Positions 47,806 through 61,021 of a stretch of 64,000 nucleotides of DNA are shown here, one piece after another. A model generated the notes under the pieces. The model had not been told where the DNA came from and ran no database searches. It saw only the letters and a list, made by a program, of their open reading frames with translations. Numbering within the stretch: the stretch's first letter is position 1; the number at the start of each line of letters is the position of its first letter. The stretch lies in contig JANQPL010000009.1 in assembly GCA_028289425.1 (NCBI GenBank), forward strand, positions 124,001 to 188,000. The letters are read 5' to 3'. The position numbers and the translations under genes are program-made. This DNA is from Alphaproteobacteria bacterium (GTDB taxonomy: Bacteria > Pseudomonadota > Alphaproteobacteria > JANQMY01).

Positions 47806-50337
47806 ATGCACAACAAAACAGCGCAAGCGGAAGGCGCACCCAGCCTTGCCGAAGCCGGCACGATGGATGATGCCGTGCGCCGTAAGCGCGAACTGCTCCT
47901 GTCCGAGAACCAAGTCACCGCCAGTGTGGTTGCCATTGTCAACAGCTCCATTCTGGCCGCGCTGCTTTATGCCCATGCCGACACCACCCTGCTGCTGAGC
48001 TGGTACGCCGCCATCGTGCTGCATGCTGCGTCACGCGGCATCTGGGAATCATGGCTCCTGCGAAATCCGGAACGGCGGAGGCGTCGTCCCCCCGCCCTAA
48101 GCGCAGCGTTCTCCGCCATCGGCGGATTTTTGTGGGGCGCCTCGATCTACACGCTACCGGCCAGTGCAGATCCCATGACCCTGAACTTGATCTGCTTCAT
48201 GATCGCCGGCATGACGGCGGGCGCTTGCGTCGCCTTTGCCACACATATTTCGACCGTTATCGCGTTTAATATCCCGGCTCTGTCGCTGCCGCTGCTTTAC
48301 CTGGCCATGCAGGGCGGCGCCATGCAATATGCCATGTGCGGGCTGCTTTTCATTTATTTCTTTGCGACACTGTTGATCGTTAGAAGATCTCATCAACAGG
48401 TCACTTCGGCGCTTGAAAACGAATATCGGGCAAATCAAAAAAGTTTGGAACTGGAAGAGCAGACGCGGGTGCTCGACAATGAAATGCTGGCGCGCAACCG
48501 GTCAGAGTCGCGCTTCGTCGCCATGCTCGCCCAAGCCCGCTCGTTCAATGCCACGCTGGAACGAATTTTCGACGCCTATATAAAACACGACGGGACGAGC
48601 GAAGCGCTGATCAGAATGGCGACGGAAGAATTGAGCCGTGCGTTGGCGATTGAGCGTGTGGGATTCTGGATGTTCACACCGGAACGCGACGCCATCGTCT
48701 GCCAAGACCTTTACGAAGCATCGAAAGGAACCCACGGCCGGGGCGACCGAATCGTAGCCGCAGAGTTTCCGGTTTACTTCAGTGCCATCAATTCAAGCAT
48801 GGCCATCGTCGCAAGCGATGCCCCCAACGACCCCCGCACGTCGGCATTCACGGAAAGCTATCTTGAACCCCAGAACATCCGGTCCCTGCTCGACGTGCCG
48901 CTGAACGGCGCACACGGGGTGCGTGGCGTGATTTGCTGCGAAAGCGTCGATTTCAAAAGGGATTGGACGGCGGAAGAAATATCTTTCGCAGCATCGGTCG
49001 CCCAATTCGTCAGCCTTAGTTTGCTGGCGGAAGATTCCCGACACTTGGCCGAAGCGTTGCGCGCGGCCATGATCGAAGCGCAAAACGCCAGCGCCACAAA
49101 GTCGGCCTTCCTCGCCAATATGAGCCACGAGATCAGGACACCCATGAATGGGGTCATGGGTATGCTGAACTTGTTGAGCGCCACGCCGCTCACGGATGGG
49201 CAGCGCGACCAGTTGGAAACAGCGCGGATTTCGGCAGAGGCCTTGCTTGCCATCCTCGACGATGTGCTCGACATCTCTAAACTCGAAGCGGGGCAGGTCA
49301 TTCTCGAAAGTGCCCCTTACGATGCCGAAAAACTGGTTCGCGACACAGTCTCTCTGCTGACGCCCAAGGCCGACGGCAAAGACTTGGATCTGCGCATGTC
49401 AATTGTCGGCCCCATACCGGCGCAAGTCAAAGGCGATGCCTTGCGCATCAAACAGGTCCTGACCAACCTGCTGGCCAACGCGGTCAAGTTCACGCAAAAA
49501 GGCAGCATCACCGTCAGCGTTTGCTGCGACACGACGACCGATGAGCAACGCCTGCGATTCGAAGTGATCGACACAGGCATCGGCATTCCCGCCGAAAAAC
49601 AAGCAGCCTTGTTCGAACGGTTTGTCCAGGCCGATTCCTCAACCACCCGGCAGTATGGCGGAACCGGTTTGGGCCTGGCGATCAGCAAACAACTCGTGAC
49701 CCTTATGGGGGGCAAAATCGGCGTCGAAAGTGCGCCCGGCCAAGGCAGTACTTTCTGGTTCGTGGTACCGGCCGCGCGGATTGACGAGCAAGAGGCAACG
49801 CAAACGAACGCCCTTTCCACCACGGAACCTGTCGCGGCCTTGAGCAACCCGCGACATGTGCTGGTGGCTGAGGATAATGCGATCAACCGGAAAGTCGTTC
49901 GTGCCTTCCTGGAGGTTGCCGGTCACACGTTCCAAATGGTGAATAACGGGGCGGAAGCGCTGGCCGCCGTTCAGAAGGATCGGTTCGATGTCATCCTGAT
50001 GGACATTCAAATGCCGATCATGGACGGCCTCACGGCAACGCGCGCGATCCGAGAACTCGACGGGCCCCAGCGGGACGTGCCCATCATCGCGCTCACCGCC
50101 AATGCTATGTCCGGCGACCGGGAGCGGTATCTGCATGAGGGCATGACGGACTATGTCAGCAAGCCGATCGACCCGGCTGAGCTCATGTCAAAAATCACGC
50201 GCGTGCTCCCAAGCCAAGAGACAAACCGGGCGCAGGAGGCACGACCGGAACCGGGTCCGCCCGCCCTTCCGTCGCCCCAAGACACCTCCGCCCTGGACGA
50301 CATCATCGCCGAAATCGACCGGGCCGCCCGCCAGTAA
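47806..50337 (+). CDS. Hybrid sensor histidine kinase with GAF and receiver domains
   Basis: An 843-residue membrane kinase. About six membrane spans lie in residues 35-185, then a coiled coil and a GAF domain (about 245-400). HisKA follows with the phospho-acceptor His near residue 441 (NMSHEIRTPMN), then HATPase (NLLANAVKFT near 555, GGTGLGLAISKQL near 618) and a receiver domain with the acceptor Asp near 733 (ILMDIQMP). No HPt domain is present, so a phosphorelay partner is needed elsewhere. No cognate regulator gene lies adjacent. The start is the first ATG; a weaker candidate is at 47863. Confidence 0.92.
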   Translation: MHNKTAQAEGAPSLAEAGTMDDAVRRKRELLLSENQVTASVVAIVNSSILAALLYAHADTTLLLSWYAAIVLHAASRGIWESWLLRNPERRRRRPPALSAAFSAIGGFLWGASIYTLPASADPMTLNLICFMIAGMTAGACVAFATHISTVIAFNIPALSLPLLYLAMQGGAMQYAMCGLLFIYFFATLLIVRRSHQQVTSALENEYRANQKSLELEEQTRVLDNEMLARNRSESRFVAMLAQARSFNATLERIFDAYIKHDGTSEALIRMATEELSRALAIERVGFWMFTPERDAIVCQDLYEASKGTHGRGDRIVAAEFPVYFSAINSSMAIVASDAPNDPRTSAFTESYLEPQNIRSLLDVPLNGAHGVRGVICCESVDFKRDWTAEEISFAASVAQFVSLSLLAEDSRHLAEALRAAMIEAQNASATKSAFLANMSHEIRTPMNGVMGMLNLLSATPLTDGQRDQLETARISAEALLAILDDVLDISKLEAGQVILESAPYDAEKLVRDTVSLLTPKADGKDLDLRMSIVGPIPAQVKGDALRIKQVLTNLLANAVKFTQKGSITVSVCCDTTTDEQRLRFEVIDTGIGIPAEKQAALFERFVQADSSTTRQYGGTGLGLAISKQLVTLMGGKIGVESAPGQGSTFWFVVPAARIDEQEATQTNALSTTEPVAALSNPRHVLVAEDNAINRKVVRAFLEVAGHTFQMVNNGAEALAAVQKDRFDVILMDIQMPIMDGLTATRAIRELDGPQRDVPIIALTANAMSGDRERYLHEGMTDYVSKPIDPAELMSKITRVLPSQETNRAQEARPEPGPPALPSPQDTSALDDIIAEIDRAARQ

Positions 50338-50427: not shown

Positions 50428-51576
50428 GTGGATAAGAACAGCCGAATACTGATTAGCGGTGCAGGGATTGCCGGATTGGCCGCGGCGCTCAGGCTTGCTC
50501 ATCACGGATTTAAGCCGGTGGTGATCGAAAAGGCCGATAGGCCACGGGTGGGTGGGTTCGTCGTCGCATTGACCCACCAAGCCTATTTTTTTGCCGAAGA
50601 GATGGGACTGCTGCCCCTGCTCGCCCCCTACGATTTGCGGATGGCTTCGTCGAGCTATCACGACCGGCATGGCAGCACACTACTCACGCTCGACAACAGC
50701 GTGATGTTTACGGGTCTTGGTATTGTGCAAATCTCGCGCGACGATCTGGCGCTGGCGCTATTTGCCGAAGCACAAAAAGTGGCTGAGATCAGAACGGACG
50801 ACTCAATCGCATCGATCACGCACCAAGATGGCCATGCCCAGGTGACCTTCGCATCCGGAACCGAAGAAAGCTTCGACGTGGTCATCGGCGCCGACGGCCT
50901 TCATTCCGGCGTGCGGCAACATGTGTTTCCCGACACGGAATACCGCCATCACTATCTCGACCTTTACGTGGCCGCTTACAAGCTGCCCAATGTGCTGGGC
51001 ATCAATGCCAAATTTGAAACCCACATGGAACGCAACCGATACATGGCCGTGCACAGCACCATCGGCGACGAGATTGGCGCGGTGTTCGTGTGGGACGGTC
51101 CCGGCGCACGCGAAGTGCCGGACGGGCCGGCGCGAAGAGATTTTCTGTTAGGCGCTTATCGCGACACGGCGCCGACCATCGCTAAAGTGCTGGAACATTG
51201 TCCGCAAGGGGAAGGGTTTTACATGGATGCCCTTGCCCAGATCGACATGCCCACTTGGCACAAGGAAAATTGCGTGCTGGTCGGCGACGCGGCCTGGTGC
51301 CTGACACTGTTTTCCGGACGTGGCGCGGCGGCAGCGTTTGCCGGCGCGTGTCGGCTGGCCGATGCACTGGCGGAATTCGACCGGGAGGGCGCCTTTCGGG
51401 CCTATGAACAGGAAACCCGGCCGATCATCGAAGACATCATGCCGGCAACGCGCAACGCGGTGCGCTGGTACGTGCCCCGGTCCATCACCAACCACGTGCT
51501 GCGCGACGGATTGATGCGGCTGGTGCCCAACATTGCGTTCCGCCAGTATTTCAAGATGAAATACTCCAAGGTCTGA
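50428..51576 (+). CDS. FAD-dependent monooxygenase/oxidoreductase (PHBH fold)
   Basis: A 382-residue flavoprotein with the class A hydroxylase motifs: ISGAGIAGLAAALRLAHHG for ADP binding, VVIGADGLHSGVRQ and VLVGDAAWCLTLFSGRGAAAA. The start is a GTG with GGGGCAA just upstream. The C-terminus is rich in aromatic and basic residues and could dock on a membrane. It begins a three-gene unit with a polysaccharide deacetylase (2-base gap) and a methyltransferase. Role in envelope lipid or polyketide oxidation is inferred from context. Confidence 0.85.
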   Translation: MDKNSRILISGAGIAGLAAALRLAHHGFKPVVIEKADRPRVGGFVVALTHQAYFFAEEMGLLPLLAPYDLRMASSSYHDRHGSTLLTLDNSVMFTGLGIVQISRDDLALALFAEAQKVAEIRTDDSIASITHQDGHAQVTFASGTEESFDVVIGADGLHSGVRQHVFPDTEYRHHYLDLYVAAYKLPNVLGINAKFETHMERNRYMAVHSTIGDEIGAVFVWDGPGAREVPDGPARRDFLLGAYRDTAPTIAKVLEHCPQGEGFYMDALAQIDMPTWHKENCVLVGDAAWCLTLFSGRGAAAAFAGACRLADALAEFDREGAFRAYEQETRPIIEDIMPATRNAVRWYVPRSITNHVLRDGLMRLVPNIAFRQYFKMKYSKV

Positions 51577-51578
51577 CG

Positions 51579-52445
51579 ATGGCGGCCGAAATCACCCTCA
51601 CATTGGATTTGGAGGACCATCGTCCCACGCCGGATCTGCCCAAAAGATATCCTGAAATGACGCGCCGGCTGATCGACTTTTTCGACGAACGGCAGATTTC
51701 AATTACCGTCTTCGTCGTGGGAACGATTGCCCAGGATGATCCGTCGTTGGTGAAGGAGATATCCACGCGCGGTCATGAAGTTGCACTGCATTCGTTCGAC
51801 CACACGCCGATCACAGATCAGACGGCGGATGAATTCCGCAGTCACACGGAACGTGGCAAGAAGATCTTGGAGGACCTGACGGGCGTTGTTGTGGCCGGAT
51901 ACCGGGCACCGCTTTTCTCGCTAACGGCGGAATCCATTTGGGCGATCGACATTTTGCGCGACCTTGGTTTCGAATACTCGTCAAGCACACTGCCGGCGCC
52001 AAACCCAATTTTCGGATTTCCAAATTTGCCCCAGCAGCCCTTCCGATGGTGGAACGGCTTGTTGGAGTTGCCGGCACCGATTGGTCATTTCGGTCTTTTG
52101 AAAGCGCCTTACCTGGGGGGTGTCTATTTTCGATATCTGCCCAACTGGGCCATCAAAAACAAGATGGCGAATGCACCGGAGGGCGCATGCCTGTGGAGCT
52201 ATTGTCACCCCTACGACATCGATTTTGAAGAAAAGAACCGCTTCATCAAGGACGCGCCCCTATGGGTGAGCCTGCTTCTTCGCTTCAAAAGAAAAAACAC
52301 GCTGCGGAAACTCGAACGGCTGCTCGCCGCGAAAGGTGTAGATTCGACACCGCCCTTCCGCGATCTGGTCCAGTCCGGAAAATTCGACCGGGTGCCGGCC
52401 CTGTCGTCCGCCGATGTCGGGGCCGTCACCACCGTCGCCGCATGA
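51579..52445 (+). CDS. Polysaccharide deacetylase family protein
   Basis: A 288-residue NodB-fold protein. Motifs are TLDLEDH (D10, D13), H71-S-F-D-H75 and AGYRAPLFSLT. The metal-binding His pair and the catalytic Asp are in place, so it is probably an active zinc-dependent deacetylase acting on an N-acetyl sugar. The closest pattern is the XrtA-associated deacetylases, which act on cell-envelope glycans. No exosortase is in the window. The downstream methyltransferase overlaps by ATGA. Confidence 0.85.
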   Translation: MAAEITLTLDLEDHRPTPDLPKRYPEMTRRLIDFFDERQISITVFVVGTIAQDDPSLVKEISTRGHEVALHSFDHTPITDQTADEFRSHTERGKKILEDLTGVVVAGYRAPLFSLTAESIWAIDILRDLGFEYSSSTLPAPNPIFGFPNLPQQPFRWWNGLLELPAPIGHFGLLKAPYLGGVYFRYLPNWAIKNKMANAPEGACLWSYCHPYDIDFEEKNRFIKDAPLWVSLLLRFKRKNTLRKLERLLAAKGVDSTPPFRDLVQSGKFDRVPALSSADVGAVTTVAA

Positions 52446-53320
52446 GCAACCGCCCCTGCCCTGCCTGCCAGGCGAACGACTGGCACCGGAAGACCGAGTG
52501 GCTGGTGGAATGTCCAAATTGCCATCTGGGAGTATCGGCGCTGCAAGATCCGCTACACAACGGCAACGACCTTGCTGGCTGGGATGCGCAAGCGGAACGC
52601 GCCATGGAACCACTGCGCCATGCATCCGCTCAGAAAGCGCTTAAAGCCATCGGCGAACACCACCCGCTCCCCGGCGCACGTCTTCTGGATGTGGGCTGCG
52701 CGGCCGGCTGGTTTGTAGACGCCGCGCGCCAGGCAGGTTGCGACGCCGAGGGCATCGAACCCGATGGCGAAATAGCTCAGAAGGCCAAACAGGCAGGCTT
52801 GCCGGTCACCCCCGGTTTTTATCCGGACGATGTGGGCGGTGAGAGAACCTTCGACATCATCTGTTTCAACGACGTGTTCGAACACTTGACCGACCCGGCG
52901 GCGGTTCTGCGCGCCATCGACCAGCACCTGGCGCCGCACGGTTTGTTGGTCTTGGCGCTGCCGAATAGTTCCGGTCCGCTCTACCGCATTGCCCGGATGT
53001 TGTTGCGCGTGGGCGTGAACGGCCCCTTCGACCGGCTTTGGCAAAAGGGGTTCGAAAGCCCCCATCTGTATTATTTCAACGCGGCAAACCTCGACCGGTT
53101 ATTGGCACGGCATGATTTTGCCCCGGCCGCGGGGTACCGGCTGCCGACCTATACGATGGGCGGCCTGTGGCCGCGCTTGCGCGAGAACGATACCGCCAAT
53201 CCAGCAACTGCCGCAGCTCTTTATGTGCTGCTGGCCGCCGCGTCGCCCGTCATTAATGGGCTGTTGCCACCAGACTCTCTTCTGCGATTGTATCGAAAAC
53301 ATCAAACGATAACCGGATAG
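52442..53320 (+). CDS. SAM-dependent methyltransferase with N-terminal zinc ribbon
   Basis: A 292-residue protein. C6-x2-C9 and C24-x2-C27 form a zinc ribbon, followed by the class I methyltransferase core with the SAM loop LLDVGCAAGWFVDAAR and acidic FDIICFNDVFEHL. This layout is common among methyltransferases of surface glycan clusters, where sugars are methylated. The start at 52442 overlaps the preceding stop (ATGA). The last 19 bases overlap the convergent FemAB-like gene. Confidence 0.85.
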   Translation: MSNRPCPACQANDWHRKTEWLVECPNCHLGVSALQDPLHNGNDLAGWDAQAERAMEPLRHASAQKALKAIGEHHPLPGARLLDVGCAAGWFVDAARQAGCDAEGIEPDGEIAQKAKQAGLPVTPGFYPDDVGGERTFDIICFNDVFEHLTDPAAVLRAIDQHLAPHGLLVLALPNSSGPLYRIARMLLRVGVNGPFDRLWQKGFESPHLYYFNAANLDRLLARHDFAPAAGYRLPTYTMGGLWPRLRENDTANPATAAALYVLLAAASPVINGLLPPDSLLRLYRKHQTITG

Positions 53321-54309
53321 AGATAGGGCCCGACCAGATTGGCAACCGGCAAAGGCATGCGTTTCCATACCCGGCTGATAAATTCATTACGCGGATTATT
53401 AGCCGTAAGATCCGGTGGCGTTTGGGCTGTGATAAGCCGGTAGGTGTAGACCAACGGCTCGGGCTCGAAACCGAAGTTCTTTTTGAAGGCATACGCGCCG
53501 CTGCCGGCCATGCTGCGGCCGAAATCGAACACCGTAGCGCCTCGCTCGGCAGCCCGGCGCATCACAGCCCAATACATAAATGGATAGGCGCTGTATCGGC
53601 GGGCTTCCGGCAAGCCGCCCCCATAATAGGGCAGCACCTGATCTCGATAATAAAAGCTCAGCACACTGGCGAGGGCATGTCCGTTTTTGGACACTGTCGT
53701 GATTTCGCAATCTTCGCCAAACACATCGCACAAGGCCGCCAGGTACTTTTTGGGAAAAACGGGGGTGCCCAAATTCCGCACGCTGGTGGCGTAGATCCGA
53801 TAGAATCGGTCCAGACCCTGATCGTGAGTAACCTCCAGCTCCGCTTTCATGCCTTTTCGCACTTCCGCGCGCTGTTTACGGGGAATGGCCTTCAGGATTT
53901 CCTCGTCATCGGCGGCAAGGGGTCGTTTGAACGAGAAATACGCATCACTTGCAATGCCAGATGCATCGTCGTTTTCCTTGCGCAACTCCATATAGCCGAC
54001 ATTGAGATCCTTTGCGGTGTCCGCCGCCGCGGACAGAAGCTCACCCCCCTCCCCAATCGGGCCACCGTGGACACACAGCGGCGTCGAAATCAGGCATGCG
54101 CCGAACAAAGGCTTCTTCACATGGGCAAGTGGCAATACACCGGCCGGGGCGCCGGCTTGTTCCGTGTACATATAGTGCGTCTTAAAGCCGAAGGCCGCCT
54201 CCATCACTTTCTTCCAGCCGGACAAATGAAAGAAGGTGCCTTGCGGCGACGATTGCACGAAATCGTCCCACGCAGCCATCTTGTCGTCGGTGAGGGACCG
54301 AACGCTCAC
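53302..54309 (-). CDS. FemAB-like GNAT-fold protein
   Basis: A 335-residue protein with two GNAT-like lobes: WDDFVQSSPQGTFFHLSGWKKVMEAAFGFKTHYMYTEQ in the first and FDFGRSMAGSGAYAFKKNFGFEPEPLVYTY in the second. This matches FemAB-related proteins of the XrtA/PEP-CTERM exopolysaccharide type, not Gram-positive FemABX. Aminoacyl or acyl transfer to a cell-surface molecule is likely. A GTG start at 54309 overlaps the upstream gene's TGA. It is the last gene of a five-gene minus-strand operon. Confidence 0.75.
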   Translation of the reverse strand: MSVRSLTDDKMAAWDDFVQSSPQGTFFHLSGWKKVMEAAFGFKTHYMYTEQAGAPAGVLPLAHVKKPLFGACLISTPLCVHGGPIGEGGELLSAAADTAKDLNVGYMELRKENDDASGIASDAYFSFKRPLAADDEEILKAIPRKQRAEVRKGMKAELEVTHDQGLDRFYRIYATSVRNLGTPVFPKKYLAALCDVFGEDCEITTVSKNGHALASVLSFYYRDQVLPYYGGGLPEARRYSAYPFMYWAVMRRAAERGATVFDFGRSMAGSGAYAFKKNFGFEPEPLVYTYRLITAQTPPDLTANNPRNEFISRVWKRMPLPVANLVGPYLYPVIV

Positions 54310-55004
54310 GATTTCACCGCCACGATCATCAACGATGCCCCGAACAATTGGGCAAGGCCGCTTTCAGGATCGATAGTGTCTGGCCCCATTGCGGGCAGGG
54401 TGACCGCTTTATGGCTGACGCTGAAACCGCATTGTTCGACCAAGCGCCCCATGTCCGTCATGGAATGGGTGTACTGAGGAAAGATGGGCTGGCCCCTCAG
54501 ACGGTCCAGAGCCGAAAACAGGGCATGCGCCGTCACATGCAGGCGGGATTCCGCATGGCGCCACAACAGAACAAGCTTGCCCCCCGGCTTAAGGACACGG
54601 GCGCATTCACCCACAAACGTCGCCGTGTCCTGCTCGTTCTGCTGATTAAGAAACTGGCAGTTAACGATCGTGCCCACCGCCCCATCAGGCAACGGCATGG
54701 CAAATGCGTTCCCTCTGATGATCGCCATGCCGTTTTGGCTGGCCGCGAAACAAGCGTCTAAATTGAAATCGATACCGAGCGGCTTGCGACCTTCATTAGG
54801 GAGACCGCGCAACATCAGTCCCGAACCGCAGGCCACATCAAGGATGGGCCGGGGCGCCCCGGCAAGGGCCTTCCAAACGATGCGCTGTTCGCGGCGAAAG
54901 AAACTTTGCAAACGGTATCCATTGGCCTGGGCGCGTGCCACGCCATACCGACCGCGCATGGCGCCATAGCGTTCGTTATCCTCCAGGTTTGCTTGCCGGT
55001 TCAT
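54306..55004 (-). CDS. SAM-dependent methyltransferase
   Basis: A 232-residue class I methyltransferase. ILDVACGSGLMLRGLPNEGRKPLGIDFN is the SAM site, followed by the acidic GNAFAMPLPDGAVGTIVN and the ARVLKPGGKLVLLWR strand. The start at 55004 overlaps the upstream stop (ATGA). It differs from the zinc-ribbon methyltransferase in the facing operon, so the cluster encodes two methylation steps. Confidence 0.85.
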   Translation of the reverse strand: MNRQANLEDNERYGAMRGRYGVARAQANGYRLQSFFRREQRIVWKALAGAPRPILDVACGSGLMLRGLPNEGRKPLGIDFNLDACFAASQNGMAIIRGNAFAMPLPDGAVGTIVNCQFLNQQNEQDTATFVGECARVLKPGGKLVLLWRHAESRLHVTAHALFSALDRLRGQPIFPQYTHSMTDMGRLVEQCGFSVSHKAVTLPAMGPDTIDPESGLAQLFGASLMIVAVKS

Positions 55005-55993
55005 GCCAAGCCCGCCTTGCGCAATCGCAAGCAACTCATGACGACGGCCCAAAATAAAAACGGAAACAAAATGATCACGATCCGAAGCATGATGCTGGCG
55101 CTTGCCGCGTCGGACGCGGTCAATCCATTGACCACCAGAAGCAGCGTTAGCCCGGCCTCGCCCACACCGATACCGCCAATCGTCTGTAGCGGGATCACTG
55201 CGAGAAAATTGTAGGCCGCCGACACGGACATGGCTTGAAAAAATGAAATCGGCAGGTGCAGTGCCATCAACAACAAGACCAAGGCCGACAGGTTAGAAAC
55301 CCACTTCAAGAAGGTGAGCCCCAACCCACCCAAAACGACGGATTGTCGGGCACCGGCCTGCCGGCTCCACAACCGTGCCTGCAGCAGCAAATGAGCGCCC
55401 TGGCGGGTCAGCCCACCATGGTGAAGACCGGCACGGCGCATGAGCAAGAAAGCGCCCGTGAGCAGATTCCCCAAATAATAAAGAACCGCAACAGCGATCC
55501 CGATCACAGCTAGGGCAGCGATGGCAAGCCAAGCCTGACTGAGCGGCCCTGCAAGACCCAAAAGCGCGATAAAGAACAACACGCTTAAGACCATCACATC
55601 GTAGAGACGTTGGGCAATAATGCTGATCGCCGCGGCGCCGCGTTTCATCTCAAGGAATCTCTCGAATACAAAAATCGCCGCCACCTCACCCAGCCTTGCC
55701 GGCAACATGACCAATAATATGACATACCAGGCATTTGCCTGAAGGCTGCCGGCGAAGCGCCCCAATTGGCCCGTGAACAGGGCGATGCGAGCTGCCGCGA
55801 AAACCCCCTCGAAAAACAAAAGAACGAGAGCGATGCCCAGCAGACCCCAATCGATTCTACTGGCCATGGCCCGCGCCGCACGCCAATCGATCTGAGCCAC
55901 CACCAGGCCCAGCAGCAACAGGCTCACCGCCGCCGCCGTGATCCAAACCGTCCGGTTGTTGGAACCGTCAGGCAGAAACGTTGAAAGCTTCAC
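55001..55993 (-). CDS. LPG-synthase transmembrane-type integral membrane protein
   Basis: A 330-residue protein with about eight membrane spans. Its pattern is that of the flippase-like N-terminal half of lysyl-phosphatidylglycerol synthases (UPF0104), including VFERFLEMKRGAAAISIIAQR and IPLQTIGGIGVGEAGLTLLL. Such proteins often move polyprenyl-linked or phospholipid cargo. No aminoacyltransferase domain follows. It overlaps the membrane glycosyltransferase gene by 26 bases and the methyltransferase gene by 4. The role as a lipid carrier flippase is inferred. Confidence 0.78.
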   Translation of the reverse strand: MKLSTFLPDGSNNRTVWITAAAVSLLLLGLVVAQIDWRAARAMASRIDWGLLGIALVLLFFEGVFAAARIALFTGQLGRFAGSLQANAWYVILLVMLPARLGEVAAIFVFERFLEMKRGAAAISIIAQRLYDVMVLSVLFFIALLGLAGPLSQAWLAIAALAVIGIAVAVLYYLGNLLTGAFLLMRRAGLHHGGLTRQGAHLLLQARLWSRQAGARQSVVLGGLGLTFLKWVSNLSALVLLLMALHLPISFFQAMSVSAAYNFLAVIPLQTIGGIGVGEAGLTLLLVVNGLTASDAASASIMLRIVIILFPFLFWAVVMSCLRLRKAGLA

Positions 55994-57425
55994 GGTACTT
56001 TTTCGCCGGGAAATCGTTTCTGGTCATCAAATCGAACGACACACGGCCGATGTAGTAAGCCATGGCGGTGGCGCACAAGGCCATGATGGGCAAATTGTAT
56101 CTAGGTATGCTGACGGACAGACCGGCATGAAACGCGATCATGTAAAGCACCGGCGCGCTCACCAAAAGAAGCATGTAGGATCTTTGTCGGATCGTTGCGA
56201 TCAGCAAGGCAACGAAAGCGATGGCGCCCACTAGTCCCCAATACTTGGCCACGAACGAACCGCGCCAGGCAAGCGCCGCGCTCACCGCCAGATTTTTGGG
56301 AGCATTGCCGATCATTTCTGTTCGTATCCAATAGGGGATGAGATTTTCCTTCCCGCCTGCTTTTTCCGCTTCCTTCAAAAACTCTTGCCGGTCATTTGCA
56401 ACCCGATAGTAACTCTCTCCTTCCCACCCCAACTTGTCGTAGTAGCGCGCCGGGAACAGTTGGGCCGACAGCGAATCGCCAAAGTCCGGCAAATAATAGA
56501 CGAACGCCGTCGCCACTTCCGGCCAGCCCATACGATTGTAGGTAAACCGTTGCATGAGCACGATTTCCGCATAATCGCCGCCGGACAAAGCCCACGTGTC
56601 AAGTTGAGCCTTGTTGCGGAGCGACCAGGGCGCCGTGACTGCCGCAAATGAGACAACCAGCAGCGTAAGACTTACGGCGGCAATACGGTTCCTGGCGATC
56701 GCCAAATAGACAAGAAAGAAAAGCACAAATCCGTAGAACAGGTAGAGATAAGTGGGCCGGGTCAAGGTAAGCACGCCCAGCAGCACGCCGATGGCGCCAA
56801 TCCAAACCAAATGACGTGTCGAATACGCGCGGGCGATACACAACATCATCCCGATGAAAAGCGGCAGTACAAAAATCTCGGTCATGAACAGAACCTGAAA
56901 TTCCGCCAAAATTCCGGCACTCCAAGCGAGGAACGCCGCGATCCAGGCAACCGCAGGCCGCTTGGTCAGTTTGAGGGTCAAAAGAAACACCAGCAGCAAG
57001 GTGACAATCGCCAAAATCCCCTGCACCACTAAAAAGAAGGCCACATTCACATCGCAAATGTCGTTGGCCAATTGTTTGGTCACCGGATCGCGTTCGTTCC
57101 AACAATAAATCGAGTCTTTAAGGCCTGGGTCGAGCCACATAAGGCCGGCGACATAGGCCGGATAGAGGGGCGCATTGGCGTTCGACGGTGCCGGCGCCTT
57201 CGAATGATCACCGATCGTCAATCCAAACACGCCGAATTCATGAAGGGATACGGCGTAATCTATATAACGCGATGCATCCGTGTGCGGACGTTCGAAAGGC
57301 TTGCCGCTGAGCAAATGAGCGCCGAGAAGAAGCACCGCGAAAACCGCAAAAAACACAACGGTTTCACGCCAAGCCGGCCGCTCGCGCGGCGTGAGCGCGT
57401 ACGCTTCAAAAGCGGCACGCGACAT
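55968..57425 (-). CDS. Polytopic membrane glycosyltransferase (GT39/PMT-like)
   Basis: A 485-residue protein with 10 or more membrane spans and an acidic first loop (RPHTDASRYIDYAV) where GT-C enzymes place a catalytic Asp. Long periplasmic loop sequences (DPGLKDSIYCWNERDPVTKQ) lie between the first two spans. It probably transfers a sugar from a polyprenyl phosphate carrier to an acceptor in the periplasm, the carrier being made by the GT2 enzyme encoded upstream. It overlaps that gene by one base (ATG within TGATG), so it is the second gene of the operon. Confidence 0.75.
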   Translation of the reverse strand: MSRAAFEAYALTPRERPAWRETVVFFAVFAVLLLGAHLLSGKPFERPHTDASRYIDYAVSLHEFGVFGLTIGDHSKAPAPSNANAPLYPAYVAGLMWLDPGLKDSIYCWNERDPVTKQLANDICDVNVAFFLVVQGILAIVTLLLVFLLTLKLTKRPAVAWIAAFLAWSAGILAEFQVLFMTEIFVLPLFIGMMLCIARAYSTRHLVWIGAIGVLLGVLTLTRPTYLYLFYGFVLFFLVYLAIARNRIAAVSLTLLVVSFAAVTAPWSLRNKAQLDTWALSGGDYAEIVLMQRFTYNRMGWPEVATAFVYYLPDFGDSLSAQLFPARYYDKLGWEGESYYRVANDRQEFLKEAEKAGGKENLIPYWIRTEMIGNAPKNLAVSAALAWRGSFVAKYWGLVGAIAFVALLIATIRQRSYMLLLVSAPVLYMIAFHAGLSVSIPRYNLPIMALCATAMAYYIGRVSFDLMTRNDFPAKKYREAFNVSA

Positions 57426-58423
57426 CACGACGGATGGTCCTCGTCCCTTCGGAAGAATCTATGCACCGGTGTCGTGGGCTGATTGTAGATGTCGAAATTG
57501 AACGCCGACAGGATCAGTTGCAGACCGACAATCATGGGCAAGGCCGCCAGCATGACGGTACCGGCCGTCGCCGCCTCACCCGCCGCGATCGATGCGCGCC
57601 ATTGGTAAGCGCCAAACAGAATCGAAAAAAACAGAAGCGGTGGCCCAATCAGAAACTCAAGCGATGCCAAATGAAAATCGCGCAAATAGTAGTTGTAGAA
57701 AATGCGTTTGAGAAAGTTGCGCACCAAAAATACCGAAAATTGGGGCAACGCTTTCCAGATTTTCAGATGGCTCTCTTCTTCTCCGTACACGGCCTTTTGC
57801 GGTACGTCCATCGCCACCGCGCGTATGGTGTTCAGCCTGAACAACATGTCGGATTCAAAAAAGAACCCTTTGGCAATCTTGTCCAACGGCAGCAGTTTCA
57901 ACGCACCGGCGTGAATTGCCGTAAAGCCGTTCGTCGGATCGAACAAGTGCCAATAGCCGGTGGAGAATTTGGTCAGAATGGACAAAACCGCGTTGCCGCA
58001 GAGGCGCACGAACGGCATGCCTTCGAGCCATTCAGGATGATAAAAGCGGTTCCCCTTGGTGTAGTCCGCCAAGCCCGCGGCAATCGGGTCCACAAAACGG
58101 GGAATGAGTGCCGGATCCATCTGGCCGTCGGCGTCCACTTTGACGATGATGTCCACATCGTCGGCGAGCGCCGCCCGATACCCGGTCATCACCGCGCCGC
58201 CCACCCCTTGATTGGACGGGTTGTACAAGACCGCCACGCGCTGATCGCGCACATTTTGTTCGATAAACAGACCCGTCTTGTCGGGACAGCCGTCGTCGAC
58301 GCAGAAAATGCGGTCGACGGTTGCCGGCATGGCGGCCAGCACGCCCAAAATGGTTTGGCGCGCTTTATAGCAGGGGATGACAACGGCGATGATCGCCGCC
58401 GCCCGTGCTTCGTCTCGTGCCAC
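57425..58423 (-). CDS. Glycosyltransferase family 2 with two C-terminal membrane spans
   Basis: A 332-residue enzyme. The GT-A fold starts with VVIPCYKARQTI, then CVDDGCPDKTG and the VKVDADGQMDP metal motif. The Arg/Asp-rich middle (FFFESDMLFRLNT) fits dolichyl-phosphate-mannose or polyprenyl-phosphate sugar synthases. Two C-terminal hydrophobic segments anchor it to the membrane. A GTG at 58423 is used as start. The frame is open further upstream to 58654, but the family fold begins at once after the GTG. It heads the five-gene minus-strand operon. Confidence 0.87.
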   Translation of the reverse strand: MARDEARAAAIIAVVIPCYKARQTILGVLAAMPATVDRIFCVDDGCPDKTGLFIEQNVRDQRVAVLYNPSNQGVGGAVMTGYRAALADDVDIIVKVDADGQMDPALIPRFVDPIAAGLADYTKGNRFYHPEWLEGMPFVRLCGNAVLSILTKFSTGYWHLFDPTNGFTAIHAGALKLLPLDKIAKGFFFESDMLFRLNTIRAVAMDVPQKAVYGEEESHLKIWKALPQFSVFLVRNFLKRIFYNYYLRDFHLASLEFLIGPPLLFFSILFGAYQWRASIAAGEAATAGTVMLAALPMIVGLQLILSAFNFDIYNQPTTPVHRFFRRDEDHPS

Positions 58424-58511: not shown

Positions 58512-59117
58512 TCACGCGGCGGCCATTCCAGGGCGGGAATTGCGCCAAATCCGGTAGGCTTCAAGGCCGGCCAGCGGCAGGAAATGCACGAGGGCCGGAC
58601 CCAGCTCGTTATGGATGAAGATCCAATGCAGCAACGTTGCGACCGCCGCCACATAGACCCAACGCTGAAGCCACTTCCAATTGGGACCCATCGTCCGTAC
58701 CGAGAAATCGTTGGACGTCAGAAACAGAGGCACAAAAATCACGAAGGCGACCCATCCGGTCCAGATACCGATCTTGACCGCATCCGTCAGCACGGCGGAT
58801 AAGGTTCCAAGATCGATCACATAATAAAGAGTGTGCAGAGCGGCATAACCGAATGCGGCAACGCCCAAATAACGCCGCCGCGCCGTGAGCCAGGCAAGCC
58901 AGCGCGTTCTTGGAAACAGCATCCGCAATGGTGTGAGCATCAAGGCGATGATCATGAAGCGGGCCGAAAACTCCCCGGTTGGGTGGAGCAATGCCTCCAG
59001 ATCATTTCCCTGCAACGCTTCCGCAATGAATGCGAATGACGGCAAGGCAAGCAATAGCCAAAACGTGTAAGGGTGGTTCCAAATACGTGCCGCCATGAGT
59101 GCGTCCCCATTTGCCAT
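58512..59117 (-). CDS. MsrQ-like haem-binding membrane protein (ferric reductase fold)
   Basis: A 201-residue, six-span protein. Paired His residues (GYAALHTLYY and ATLLHWIFIHNELG) are positioned to bind haem b. MsrQ/YedZ proteins pass electrons from the respiratory chain to the periplasmic methionine sulfoxide reductase MsrP. No msrP gene is in view, so another partner is possible. The start at 59117 has AAGGAA upstream and opens into the first helix. The upstream open frame is not convincing. Confidence 0.8.
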   Translation of the reverse strand: MANGDALMAARIWNHPYTFWLLLALPSFAFIAEALQGNDLEALLHPTGEFSARFMIIALMLTPLRMLFPRTRWLAWLTARRRYLGVAAFGYAALHTLYYVIDLGTLSAVLTDAVKIGIWTGWVAFVIFVPLFLTSNDFSVRTMGPNWKWLQRWVYVAAVATLLHWIFIHNELGPALVHFLPLAGLEAYRIWRNSRPGMAAA

Positions 59118-59282: not shown

Positions 59283-59347
59283 ACGTCGCGCTTTTTTTGT
59301 AGCATGATGGGCTGAATTCGGTGCACGAACGCGTGGGGGGTAGGCGT

Positions 59348-61021
59348 ATGCGGGCCGTTGCGATCGTCATTTCCATCATTGCCTTGATGCTGGCTACGCT
59401 GAGCATCGTTCTTCAAAGCAACACGTCCCGGCAGCTGCAGCAAGTGGCGTCGGACCAGCGCGACTTAGAAGAGCAGATGGAGACACAGTCCACGCGACTT
59501 GCGGAAGTGGAATCCGACGTCAAACAAAACACCGAAGCCACGCGCGCCACACAAAACGAAGTCGCAAGTCTGGGGTCAAGCTTGCAAGACCTGCGGGATT
59601 CGGTCCTCGAAGAAACCTTGAACGCCGAAGCCGCCGAATTGGCGCGCAAAGCGACTTATTTGGTGATCGCAACGGACGGGAAAGGGGAAACGCCCGTCGG
59701 CACCGCCTGGGTGGTCCGCGATTCCGTTTTAGCAACAAATGCCCATGTGGCGCGGGTCAGCCAATTGCTCGACCCGGCGAAGAACCAAAGGCTCATTCTC
59801 AAAAACAGAACGTCCTTCCATGACGTTCTTGAGATTCGGATGCATCGGGGCCACAAGGTTTTTGCCGACACGGTAGACGACTACAAGCCGTTGCTCCGGG
59901 GGGCAGCAGGCTGGCAATCCGTGCGGATCTTCGGTGGCTATGACGTGGCACTCATGTATGTGACCAATGCCGAGCAGCTTCCGCCCCCATTGCCGGTGGC
60001 GTCCCCGGAGACTCTGGCCAGCCTTAGTCAGTTGCAACCACTTTTTATGGTCGGATTTCCGTTGGCCGGCACACAATCGGCAACCATCGAAAGCCTGTCT
60101 CTAAACCCGCGCGCCTCGCGCGGCACCGTGTTGGCGACCGCCCCTTACATTCCCAAACACCCTGATGAAACCGACTCCGATGAACTTAAGAAGACGGAGT
60201 ACTTTGTACTGCATGATTTGTTTGCCGCCCCAGGAAACAGCGGCAGCCCGATGCTCAACGCAAAAGGCGAAGTTGTTGCCATTCTTTCCCACGGGTTTGG
60301 CGGCTCGGGAACTGGGGAAAAAGGTGCTCAGCGGGCAGACATTCTTTTGGAACTTCTGGATCAGCAAGACATAACGCGTGTCCGCGAGTTTCATAGTCCA
60401 CGTTGGCGCCGTCGCCTGTCTCAGTTCGAACAGGCCGACCGGGTGGTCAGAAGAGAGCTCGAAGCGTATGTCAGAAGCCAAGTAAACGGCGTTCAAATTG
60501 TTTCGCACACGTTGAACCACGGATCGTTTGACGAGCGTGTCCGGGAATTCACTTTTCAACAAGCCAAAGCAGATGTGGACGGCAACACAAGCGTGACCAC
60601 AACGACCGTCGGTGTGCCCGGCTACCATTACCCGGCACGCTTGTCGCTTCCGGCGGCACAAGATCATCTGCTCTACACATTCGATTATCGCAATGATGGG
60701 GCGCCGTGTTACGTGGATGCTTTGCGGCAGTTTCAAGGCGGTTGGCGCAAGACGGCCCGTCAAATCTCACGCGAAGTGCTGCAAATCCAAGGGCTCTATG
60801 TGTTCTTCACATTTATTCAAGGCGACTCGTTCGGCCCAAGCACCGAGCAAATCGTTTTCTGGCAAGACCCGCGCTGTTCGCAAAGCCATAATTTCACTTA
60901 CGGTGTGATTTCTTACAACGAGCCGATTGTCCAATCGCCGGAGCAGGAAGTCAGCCGCTTGGACGATTTGCAACGCTGGATCACGGGCTGGGTGGATTAC
61001 ATCGAAGCCTTGGCCGAATAA
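59348..61021 (+). CDS. Membrane-anchored trypsin-like serine protease with coiled coil
   Basis: A 557-residue protein. A membrane anchor (residues 1-24) is followed by a coiled coil (about 30-100, heptad-like LAEVESDVKQNTEATRATQ) and a trypsin-fold domain. The catalytic triad is H132 (TNAHVA), D199 (YDVALMYV) and S298 (GNSGSP). The C-terminal ~180 residues are of no recognised family and contain alternating strands. The protease faces the periplasm. GGGGGG precedes the ATG at 59348. Degradation or signalling roles cannot be chosen. It converges on the malic enzyme gene. Confidence 0.8.
   Translation: MRAVAIVISIIALMLATLSIVLQSNTSRQLQQVASDQRDLEEQMETQSTRLAEVESDVKQNTEATRATQNEVASLGSSLQDLRDSVLEETLNAEAAELARKATYLVIATDGKGETPVGTAWVVRDSVLATNAHVARVSQLLDPAKNQRLILKNRTSFHDVLEIRMHRGHKVFADTVDDYKPLLRGAAGWQSVRIFGGYDVALMYVTNAEQLPPPLPVASPETLASLSQLQPLFMVGFPLAGTQSATIESLSLNPRASRGTVLATAPYIPKHPDETDSDELKKTEYFVLHDLFAAPGNSGSPMLNAKGEVVAILSHGFGGSGTGEKGAQRADILLELLDQQDITRVREFHSPRWRRRLSQFEQADRVVRRELEAYVRSQVNGVQIVSHTLNHGSFDERVREFTFQQAKADVDGNTSVTTTTVGVPGYHYPARLSLPAAQDHLLYTFDYRNDGAPCYVDALRQFQGGWRKTARQISREVLQIQGLYVFFTFIQGDSFGPSTEQIVFWQDPRCSQSHNFTYGVISYNEPIVQSPEQEVSRLDDLQRWITGWVDYIEALAE

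What the first reader, a model, noticed from the sequence alone, without database searches (positions are those of the whole stretch)
50428..58423. Eight-gene convergent envelope-modification cluster
A three-gene plus-strand unit (flavoprotein, deacetylase, zinc-ribbon methyltransferase) meets a five-gene minus-strand unit (GT2, membrane GT, flippase-like, methyltransferase, FemAB-like). All genes overlap or nearly so. Together they can make a polyprenyl-linked sugar, transfer it in the periplasm and decorate it. No exosortase or polymerase is present, so this is not a standard exopolysaccharide locus.
Basis: inference. Interest (0 to 1): 0.6.

Follow-up and report, generated by a model that had tools for sequence, protein, structure and literature searches.

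The report
Conserved convergent sugar-lipid tailoring gene cluster
A compact block of seven core genes, plus one add-on gene, recurs as a unit in distantly related alphaproteobacteria, including Micavibrio, and most likely builds an unusual modified amino sugar on a membrane lipid carrier and attaches it to something on the outside of the cell membrane.

Summary
The eight genes and their overlaps are real. Seven of the eight genes recur in the same convergent order in seven other genomes (six Micavibrionales, one of another order; p8 unlinked in four of them), in an eighth split at a contig break, and reshuffled in a Hyphomicrobiales MAG. Flanks differ between lineages. The zinc-ribbon methyltransferase (p3) is an add-on found only in the window and the reshuffled locus. 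Where GT2 (p8) is not linked, an orthologue lies elsewhere in the genome.

No exosortase is detected in the window's genome or in seven of eight relatives tested. Yet the FemAB protein passes NCBI's XrtA-associated FemAB model, and the deacetylase/FemAB pair also sits inside true exosortase-A loci. In trees the cluster's copies form their own clades (the reshuffled locus's FemAB excepted).

Best mechanism: a Gtr/Arn-like periplasmic glycosylation system with a modified donor. GT2 makes a polyprenyl-phosphate amino sugar, the deacetylase frees its amine, the FemX-fold protein acylates it (probably aminoacyl from tRNA), the PF03706 protein flips it, and the GT-C enzyme transfers it. Roles of the flavoprotein and methyltransferases, and the acceptor, are unknown. 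All chemistry is inferred.

The parts
50428..51576 (+). p1, FAD-dependent monooxygenase (PHBH/tetracycline-destructase-like fold family); GTG start; core gene
   Evidence: PF01494 E=1.1e-12; best PDB relatives Tet(50)-type enzymes E=5e-64 by profile; GxGxxG, DG and GD motifs conserved across 10 orthologues; same N-terminus MxKxSxILISGAG in relatives
51579..52445 (+). p2, polysaccharide deacetylase with DUF3473, presumed cytoplasmic; core gene
   Evidence: PF01522 E=1.1e-18, PF11959 E=2.7e-20; TIGR03006 176 bits, below its 276 cut-off; metal/catalytic motifs D10-x-E-D13, H71SxDH75, R109-A-P, H210-P invariant in 9 orthologues
52442..53320 (+). p3, class I SAM methyltransferase with N-terminal CPxC...CPxC (zinc-ribbon-like); add-on gene inserted between the two convergent units
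   Evidence: PF13489 E=1e-24; ATGA overlap with p2; absent from the other convergent loci, present in the rearranged locus L061 (38%) and, with p6-p8 relatives, in L041 (42%)
53302..54309 (-). p4, FemX-fold tandem-GNAT acyl/aminoacyl transferase (TIGR03019 family); core gene
   Evidence: TIGR03019 394 bits vs cut-off 260; AF2 pLDDT 87.8; Foldseek best hits Sbb17/Sba18 aminoacyl-tRNA-dependent synthases E=7e-18 and FemX E=1.5e-17; K276 aligns with FemX catalytic K305 and is invariant
54306..55004 (-). p5, class I SAM methyltransferase; core gene (ATG at 55004; the ORF's upstream TTG at 55052 is not the likely start)
   Evidence: PF08241 E=9.4e-14; conserved N-terminal stretch RYxxLRxRHGxxxPQANGYRL in relatives
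55001..55993 (-). p6, PF03706/UPF0104 integral membrane protein, presumed flippase; core gene
   Evidence: PF03706 E=4.5e-27; about 8 TM segments by hydropathy
55968..57428 (-). p7, GT-C fold membrane glycosyltransferase; core gene
   Evidence: PF13231 weak, below cut-off; AF2 pLDDT 82.8; Foldseek hits at E<=0.001 are all GT-C enzymes, PglB/AglB/ArnT; invariant D51 and C109/C125 in the first extramembrane loop
57425..58423 (-). p8, GT2 polyprenyl-phosphate sugar synthase-like, two C-terminal TM segments; core gene, unlinked in some genomes
   Evidence: PF00535 E=3e-18; profile hits dolichol-phosphate mannose synthase E=7e-21, ArnC, sll0501; DxDGQ invariant; two C-terminal TM segments

Best explanation
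The cluster is a self-contained envelope glycosylation system of the 'lipid-linked donor, flippase, GT-C' kind, extended by donor-tailoring enzymes. p8 charges a polyprenyl phosphate with an N-acetylated sugar. p2 removes the acetyl group on the cytoplasmic side. p4, a FemX-fold transferase, puts a new acyl group, most likely an aminoacyl group from aminoacyl-tRNA, on the freed amine. p1 (oxygenation) and p5 (methylation; p3 is a second, optional methyltransferase) make further changes. p6 flips the lipid-linked sugar and p7 transfers it on the periplasmic side to an acceptor (lipid A/LPS core, another glycan, or protein). Shown here: gene content, co-conservation, absence of exosortase, fold assignments, retained catalytic residues. 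Inferred: every substrate, the order of steps, the aminoacyl donor, the acceptor.
For: Co-conservation of the two units with different flanks, and in a rearranged order in L061; correlated divergence of all core genes, pairwise Pearson r 0.83-0.98; p8 kept in trans where unlinked. p8 profile matches DPM synthase, ArnC and sll0501, and p8 homologues elsewhere neighbour small 4-TM EmrE-like proteins. p7 fold is GT-C. p2 active-site motifs invariant. p4 fold matches FemX and the streptothrisamine aminoacyl-tRNA-dependent synthases, with the catalytic Lys kept; [quoted passage not shown] Deacetylase + FemX-like GNAT is a known functional pair, HfsH/HfsK of the Caulobacter holdfast (PMC5362036), and is adjacent in exosortase-A loci. 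PF03706 proteins work with a glycosyltransferase and deacetylase in GpgSDF (PMC12713373) and HexSDF (PMC10128005), and neighbour a PMT/STT3-like enzyme and an AglD-like GT in archaea (PMC5898192).
Against: No biochemistry. The sugar on p8 is not predictable. FemX-fold proteins also resemble CoA-dependent GNATs, so the donor could be acyl-CoA. p4 in L061 is not orthologous (28%, long branch), so the acyl step may vary. p7's Foldseek TM-scores are modest (0.36-0.48), which gives the fold class but not the acceptor. Flavoprotein and methyltransferase roles are unassigned. Flippase activity of PF03706 proteins outside MprF is itself largely inferred in the literature cited.
Confidence: 0.55

Rival explanations
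1. Membrane glycolipid tailoring like HexSDF/GpgSDF: p8 glycosylates a phospholipid or diacylglycerol, p2 deacetylates, p6 flips; the product is a cationic, possibly aminoacylated glycolipid that stays in the membrane.
For: Same trio of glycosyltransferase, deacetylase and PF03706 flippase as GpgSDF and HexSDF (PMC12713373, PMC10128005); p4 also matches the MprF aminoacyltransferase domain at lower rank.
Against: p8 is a GT2 of the DPM/ArnC type, while GpgS is reported as GT4-like; a GT-C enzyme (p7) is always present and such enzymes use polyprenyl-linked donors.
Confidence: 0.17
2. Modification module for a capsule, adhesin or exopolysaccharide made by genes elsewhere, comparable to holdfast HfsH/HfsK or to exosortase-A exopolysaccharide tailoring.
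For: p2/p4 families are the ones used in exosortase-A loci and resemble HfsH/HfsK.
Against: No polymerase, export or chain-length genes in the cluster; no exosortase in the genome; p2 and p4 trees separate from exosortase-locus copies. It remains possible that p7 decorates such a polymer in the periplasm.
Confidence: 0.15
3. A small-molecule or glycolipid natural-product cluster (FAD monooxygenase, methyltransferases, aminoacyl-tRNA-dependent transferase, glycosyltransferase), the membrane proteins serving export.
For: Tailoring-enzyme content; p4's nearest folds are antibiotic-pathway enzymes; p1's nearest solved relatives are tetracycline destructases; patchy distribution.
Against: No scaffold-forming enzyme; DPM-type GT2 plus GT-C is an envelope-glycosylation signature; kept in about 2-Mb genomes.
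Confidence: 0.08
4. Two unrelated operons that happen to face each other (chance neighbours).
For: Convergent genes need not share function.
Against: Same convergent order in eight genomes, the window included, with different flanks; the set stays together when rearranged (L061); the divergent p1-like hits (27-30% identity) examined in other genomes have none of p2-p8 nearby (L081, L082, L084).
Confidence: 0.03

Closest known systems
Gtr-type three-component periplasmic glycosylation (GtrA/GtrB/Gtr GT-C; extended in PMC11127046)
   Same: polyprenyl-phosphate sugar synthase of the DPM type (p8), a membrane protein proposed as flippase (p6), and a GT-C fold transferase (p7)
   Different: flippase is PF03706/UPF0104 rather than GtrA/SMR or MATE; four linked donor-tailoring genes (p1, p2, p4, p5) are added
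Arn / FlmF2-NaxD lipid A amino-sugar pathways (ArnC-ArnD-ArnT; undecaprenyl-phosphate galactosamine in Francisella)
   Same: undecaprenyl-phosphate sugar synthase, deformylase/deacetylase on the lipid-linked sugar, ArnT-like GT-C; p2 weakly matches the ArnD model (E=7.8e-4)
   Different: no nucleotide-sugar genes, no clear sequence orthology to ArnT; extra FemX-fold, flavin and methyl steps; acceptor unknown. The Arn/NaxD scheme is from general knowledge plus reference titles seen.
Exosortase-A (XrtA/PEP-CTERM) exopolysaccharide locus tailoring pair TIGR03006 + TIGR03019
   Same: adjacent deacetylase and FemAB-like genes of the same families
   Different: no exosortase, chain-length or export genes; separate clades; deacetylase below the family cut-off; convergent rather than tandem orientation
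Caulobacter holdfast HfsH/HfsK
   Same: polysaccharide deacetylase plus FemX-like tandem GNAT thought to acylate the exposed amine (PMC5362036)
   Different: holdfast polymer synthesis and export genes are not part of this cluster; HfsK's c-di-GMP-responsive C terminus was not compared
HexSDF / GpgSDF amino-glycolipid operons
   Same: glycosyltransferase, deacetylase, PF03706 flippase
   Different: different glycosyltransferase family; here a GT-C acceptor enzyme and a FemX-fold enzyme are always present

Membership tests
XrtA/PEP-CTERM exopolysaccharide locus | exosortase (PF09721) in the genome | tested here: not met
   no match in G000 at E<=10; absent in 7 of 8 cluster-bearing relatives tested, present but on another contig in G488; positive controls G040 and G015 ring at their XrtA loci
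XrtA/PEP-CTERM exopolysaccharide locus | FemAB protein over TIGR03019 cut-off | tested here: met
   393.6 vs 260.35 bits; also in L058 and L040
XrtA/PEP-CTERM exopolysaccharide locus | deacetylase over TIGR03006 cut-off | tested here: not met
   175.8 vs 276.2 bits in the window; 210 and 179 in relatives
XrtA/PEP-CTERM exopolysaccharide locus | chain-length determinant, export protein and autokinase genes alongside | tested here: not met
   none among ORFs around the cluster; present in true loci
Three-component periplasmic glycosylation system (Gtr-like) | polyprenyl-phosphate sugar synthase (GT2, DPM type) | tested here: met
   profile match to DPMS, ArnC and sll0501; activity not tested
Three-component periplasmic glycosylation system (Gtr-like) | flippase for the lipid-linked sugar (GtrA/SMR or MATE in known cases) | tested here: inconclusive
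   p6 is PF03706, a different presumed flippase family; transport not testable here
Three-component periplasmic glycosylation system (Gtr-like) | GT-C fold transferase | tested here: met
   Foldseek hits at E<=0.001 are all GT-C (PglB, AglB, ArnT)
Three-component periplasmic glycosylation system (Gtr-like) | periplasmic transfer of the sugar to a glycan acceptor | not testable with these tools
   needs mutant glycan/lipid analysis
FemABX aminoacyl-tRNA-dependent transferases | tandem GNAT fold with catalytic Lys equivalent to FemX K305 | tested here: met
   K276 invariant
FemABX aminoacyl-tRNA-dependent transferases | use of aminoacyl-tRNA | not testable with these tools
   in vitro assay needed
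Tetracycline destructases (p1) | score over NCBIfam tet_destruct cut-off | tested here: not met
   167 vs 550 bits
HexSDF/GpgSDF | glycosyltransferase of the HexS (MGDG-synthase-like) or GpgS (GT4) type | tested here: not met
   p8 is GT2; family of GpgS/HexS taken from PMC12713373 and PMC10128005

The most novel reading that the evidence does not exclude
A dedicated system that aminoacylates a polyprenyl-phosphate-linked amino sugar with aminoacyl-tRNA, oxidises and methylates it, and then installs this ready-made aminoacyl-sugar on the outer face of the membrane: a tRNA-dependent surface glycosylation spread across unrelated alphaproteobacteria, including Micavibrio relatives.
Probability: 0.3. 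Interest if true: 0.7.

Novelty: new variant of a known kind. Interest (0 to 1): 0.47.

Why it matters
It gives a testable function for the deacetylase/FemAB pair that NCBI labels 'exosortase-associated', by showing the same families working outside any exosortase locus. It points to a surface glycan or lipid with an acylated, probably aminoacylated amino sugar that I did not find described, in little-studied alphaproteobacteria including Micavibrionales. If true it would link tRNA-dependent aminoacyl transfer to periplasmic glycosylation.

Tried and rejected
Chance adjacency: rejected by synteny. Exosortase locus: rejected by a genome-wide exosortase search. Tetracycline destructase for p1: rejected, far below the model cut-off. 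Hybrid histidine kinase 47806-50337 and MsrQ-like gene 58515-59117 as cluster members: rejected, not next to the cluster in relatives. Recent horizontal acquisition by composition: cluster G+C 57.5% vs flanks 58.3%, no signal. Plasmid carriage: no p1 relative at E<=1e-40 among 72,556 plasmids. Viral carriage: one distant relative only (28%). p1 orthologues beyond Alphaproteobacteria: none in 219 phylum genomes at E<=1e-90 apart from the window's own. Promoter and terminator scans gave no more than shuffled sequence. Paper search for the FemAB/XrtA/PEP-CTERM combination gave no paper holding all three terms.
Full report
WHAT IS THERE. The eight ORFs are at the stated place. Pfam and NCBIfam give p1 FAD monooxygenase, p2 polysaccharide deacetylase with DUF3473, p3 SAM methyltransferase with an N-terminal CPxC...CPxC motif, p4 FemAB/Acetyltransf_6, p5 SAM methyltransferase, p6 PF03706 membrane protein, p7 weak PMT_2, p8 GT2. 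Reading the sequence, genes within each unit overlap by 4-26 nt or are 2 nt apart, and p3 and p4 overlap by 19 nt at their 3' ends. The real start of p5 is most likely ATG 55004, judged from the N-termini of relatives.

CO-CONSERVATION. A p7 search of 386 Alphaproteobacteria genomes gave three strong relatives besides the window itself (G304, G357, G096). Two of them carry p8-p7-p6-p5-p4 convergent with p2-p1 in the same order; in the third (G357) the cluster is split by contig ends between p2 and p4. A scan of public genome contigs with a p1 alignment found four loci, among them Micavibrio sp. DHS20C02 (the same record as G304) and a Hyphomicrobiales MAG, OFTM169. In the OFTM169 MAG (L061) relatives of all eight genes lie together in a different order: p3+, p6+, p8-, p1+, p2+, p4+, p5-, p7-. 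In the order of G304, 6 of 142 genomes (three genera) have p1, and all six have the convergent p1-p2 >< p4-p5-p6-p7 set. In 385 class genomes the p1 profile at E<=1e-50 gave four true orthologues (E<=1e-170: G000, G304, G096, G357), and then only much weaker hits; of these the three examined (27-30% identity) have no other cluster gene nearby (L081, L082, L084). Full-length p1 orthologues were thus found only with the rest of the set. The only other genome held of the window's genus, G001, lacks p1, p7 and p8 and has only a weak FemAB hit.

Flanking genes differ between lineages (recognised by eye): TypA-like and a DEAD-box helicase on the p1 side in L038, a RecQ-like helicase in L059, other genes in L077 and L079, so the conserved unit ends at p1 and at p7/p8. 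Deacetylase and FemAB 3' ends overlap by 11 nt in all six Micavibrionales loci and by 8 nt in L040. Pairwise protein distances of the core genes correlate at r = 0.83-0.98, as expected for a set inherited together; this does not separate vertical descent from joint transfer. The methyltransferase p3 is an add-on: absent from the other convergent loci, present in L061 and in L041 next to relatives of p6, p7 and p8. In G478, G490, G491 and G492 p8 is not next to p7, but a p8 orthologue (E about 1e-146) lies elsewhere in each genome.

RELATION TO EXOSORTASE LOCI. p4 scores 394 bits on TIGR03019 (cut-off 260), p2 176 bits on TIGR03006 (cut-off 276). The window's genome has no PF09721 match, nor have seven of eight cluster-bearing relatives; G488 has one on another contig; G040 and G015 serve as positive controls. 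In trees, cluster p2 sequences form one clade against exosortase-locus p2 (100/100) and nine cluster p4 sequences form a clade (98/98); the L061 p4 is divergent and not orthologous. The cluster therefore shares two tailoring families with exosortase loci but is a separate system.

PROTEIN-LEVEL EVIDENCE. p2: D-x-E-D, HSxDH, RAP and HP motifs invariant in nine orthologues, so it should be active; it has no TM segment by hydropathy. p4: confident model (pLDDT 87.8); best PDB folds are Sbb17/Sba18, aminoacyl-tRNA-dependent synthases solved with streptothrisamine, then FemX, then FemA and MprF; K276 aligns with FemX K305, the residue described as catalytic in PMC12945691. [quoted passage not shown] p7: model pLDDT 82.8; significant folds are PglB, AglB and ArnT; an invariant Asp and two invariant Cys lie in the first extramembrane loop, compatible with a periplasmic active-site loop. 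p8: profile hits to DPM synthase, ArnC and sll0501, invariant DxDGQ, two C-terminal TM segments; homologues elsewhere in Pseudomonadota sit beside small 4-TM EmrE-like proteins (by reading). p1: nearest solved relatives are Tet(50)-type enzymes but it is far below the destructase cut-off.

HOW IT PROBABLY WORKS. Known three-component systems use a polyprenyl-phosphate sugar synthase, a flippase and a GT-C enzyme (PMC11127046). p8, p6 and p7 fit those roles, with a PF03706 protein as flippase. The same family is linked to a PMT/STT3-like enzyme and an AglD-like GT in archaea (PMC5898192) and to a deacetylase plus glycosyltransferase in GpgSDF and HexSDF. Deacetylation followed by acylation of the freed amine is the scheme proposed for HfsH and HfsK in the Caulobacter holdfast (PMC5362036). 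Combining these, the donor sugar would be N-acetylated by origin, deacetylated by p2, re-acylated by p4 (aminoacyl-tRNA more likely than acyl-CoA given fold and Lys), oxygenated by p1 and methylated by p5, then flipped and transferred. All substrate statements are inference.

VERDICT. I rate it a new variant of a known kind. No characterised system with this gene set was found in the literature searched, but that search was limited (seven searches of open-licence papers).

Noticed in passing
58515-59117 (-): MsrQ/ferric-reductase-like membrane protein just upstream of p8 on the same strand; matches the MsrQ model below its cut-off (69 vs 130 bits); no MsrP-like ORF was recognised beside it. 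Not part of the cluster in relatives.
   Followed up: partly
47806-50337 (+): Hybrid histidine kinase ending 90 nt upstream of p1 on the same strand; could read through into p1 in this genome, but is not next to p1 in relatives.
   Followed up: partly
L061:5058-5576 (+): ORF that looks like an IS6-type transposase directly beside p3 in the rearranged eight-gene locus of the Hyphomicrobiales MAG, a hint at how the set was reshuffled (recognised by eye only).
   Followed up: no
L140:4613-7002: Chelatococcus daeguensis plasmid: XrtA-type deacetylase and FemAB genes head-to-head in an O-antigen-ligase polysaccharide locus, with no exosortase annotated in the 13 kb shown; another exosortase-free context for the pair.
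   Followed up: no
L113, L114, L118, L119 and other p8 homologue loci: p8-type GT2 is widespread in Pseudomonadota (18 genera of 224 sampled) in varied contexts, often beside small 4-TM EmrE-like proteins; its sugar is apparently uncharacterised.
   Followed up: partly
59321-61021 (+): Protein with an N-terminal membrane anchor and a serine-protease-like (GNSGSP) region, next to the MsrQ-like gene.
   Followed up: no
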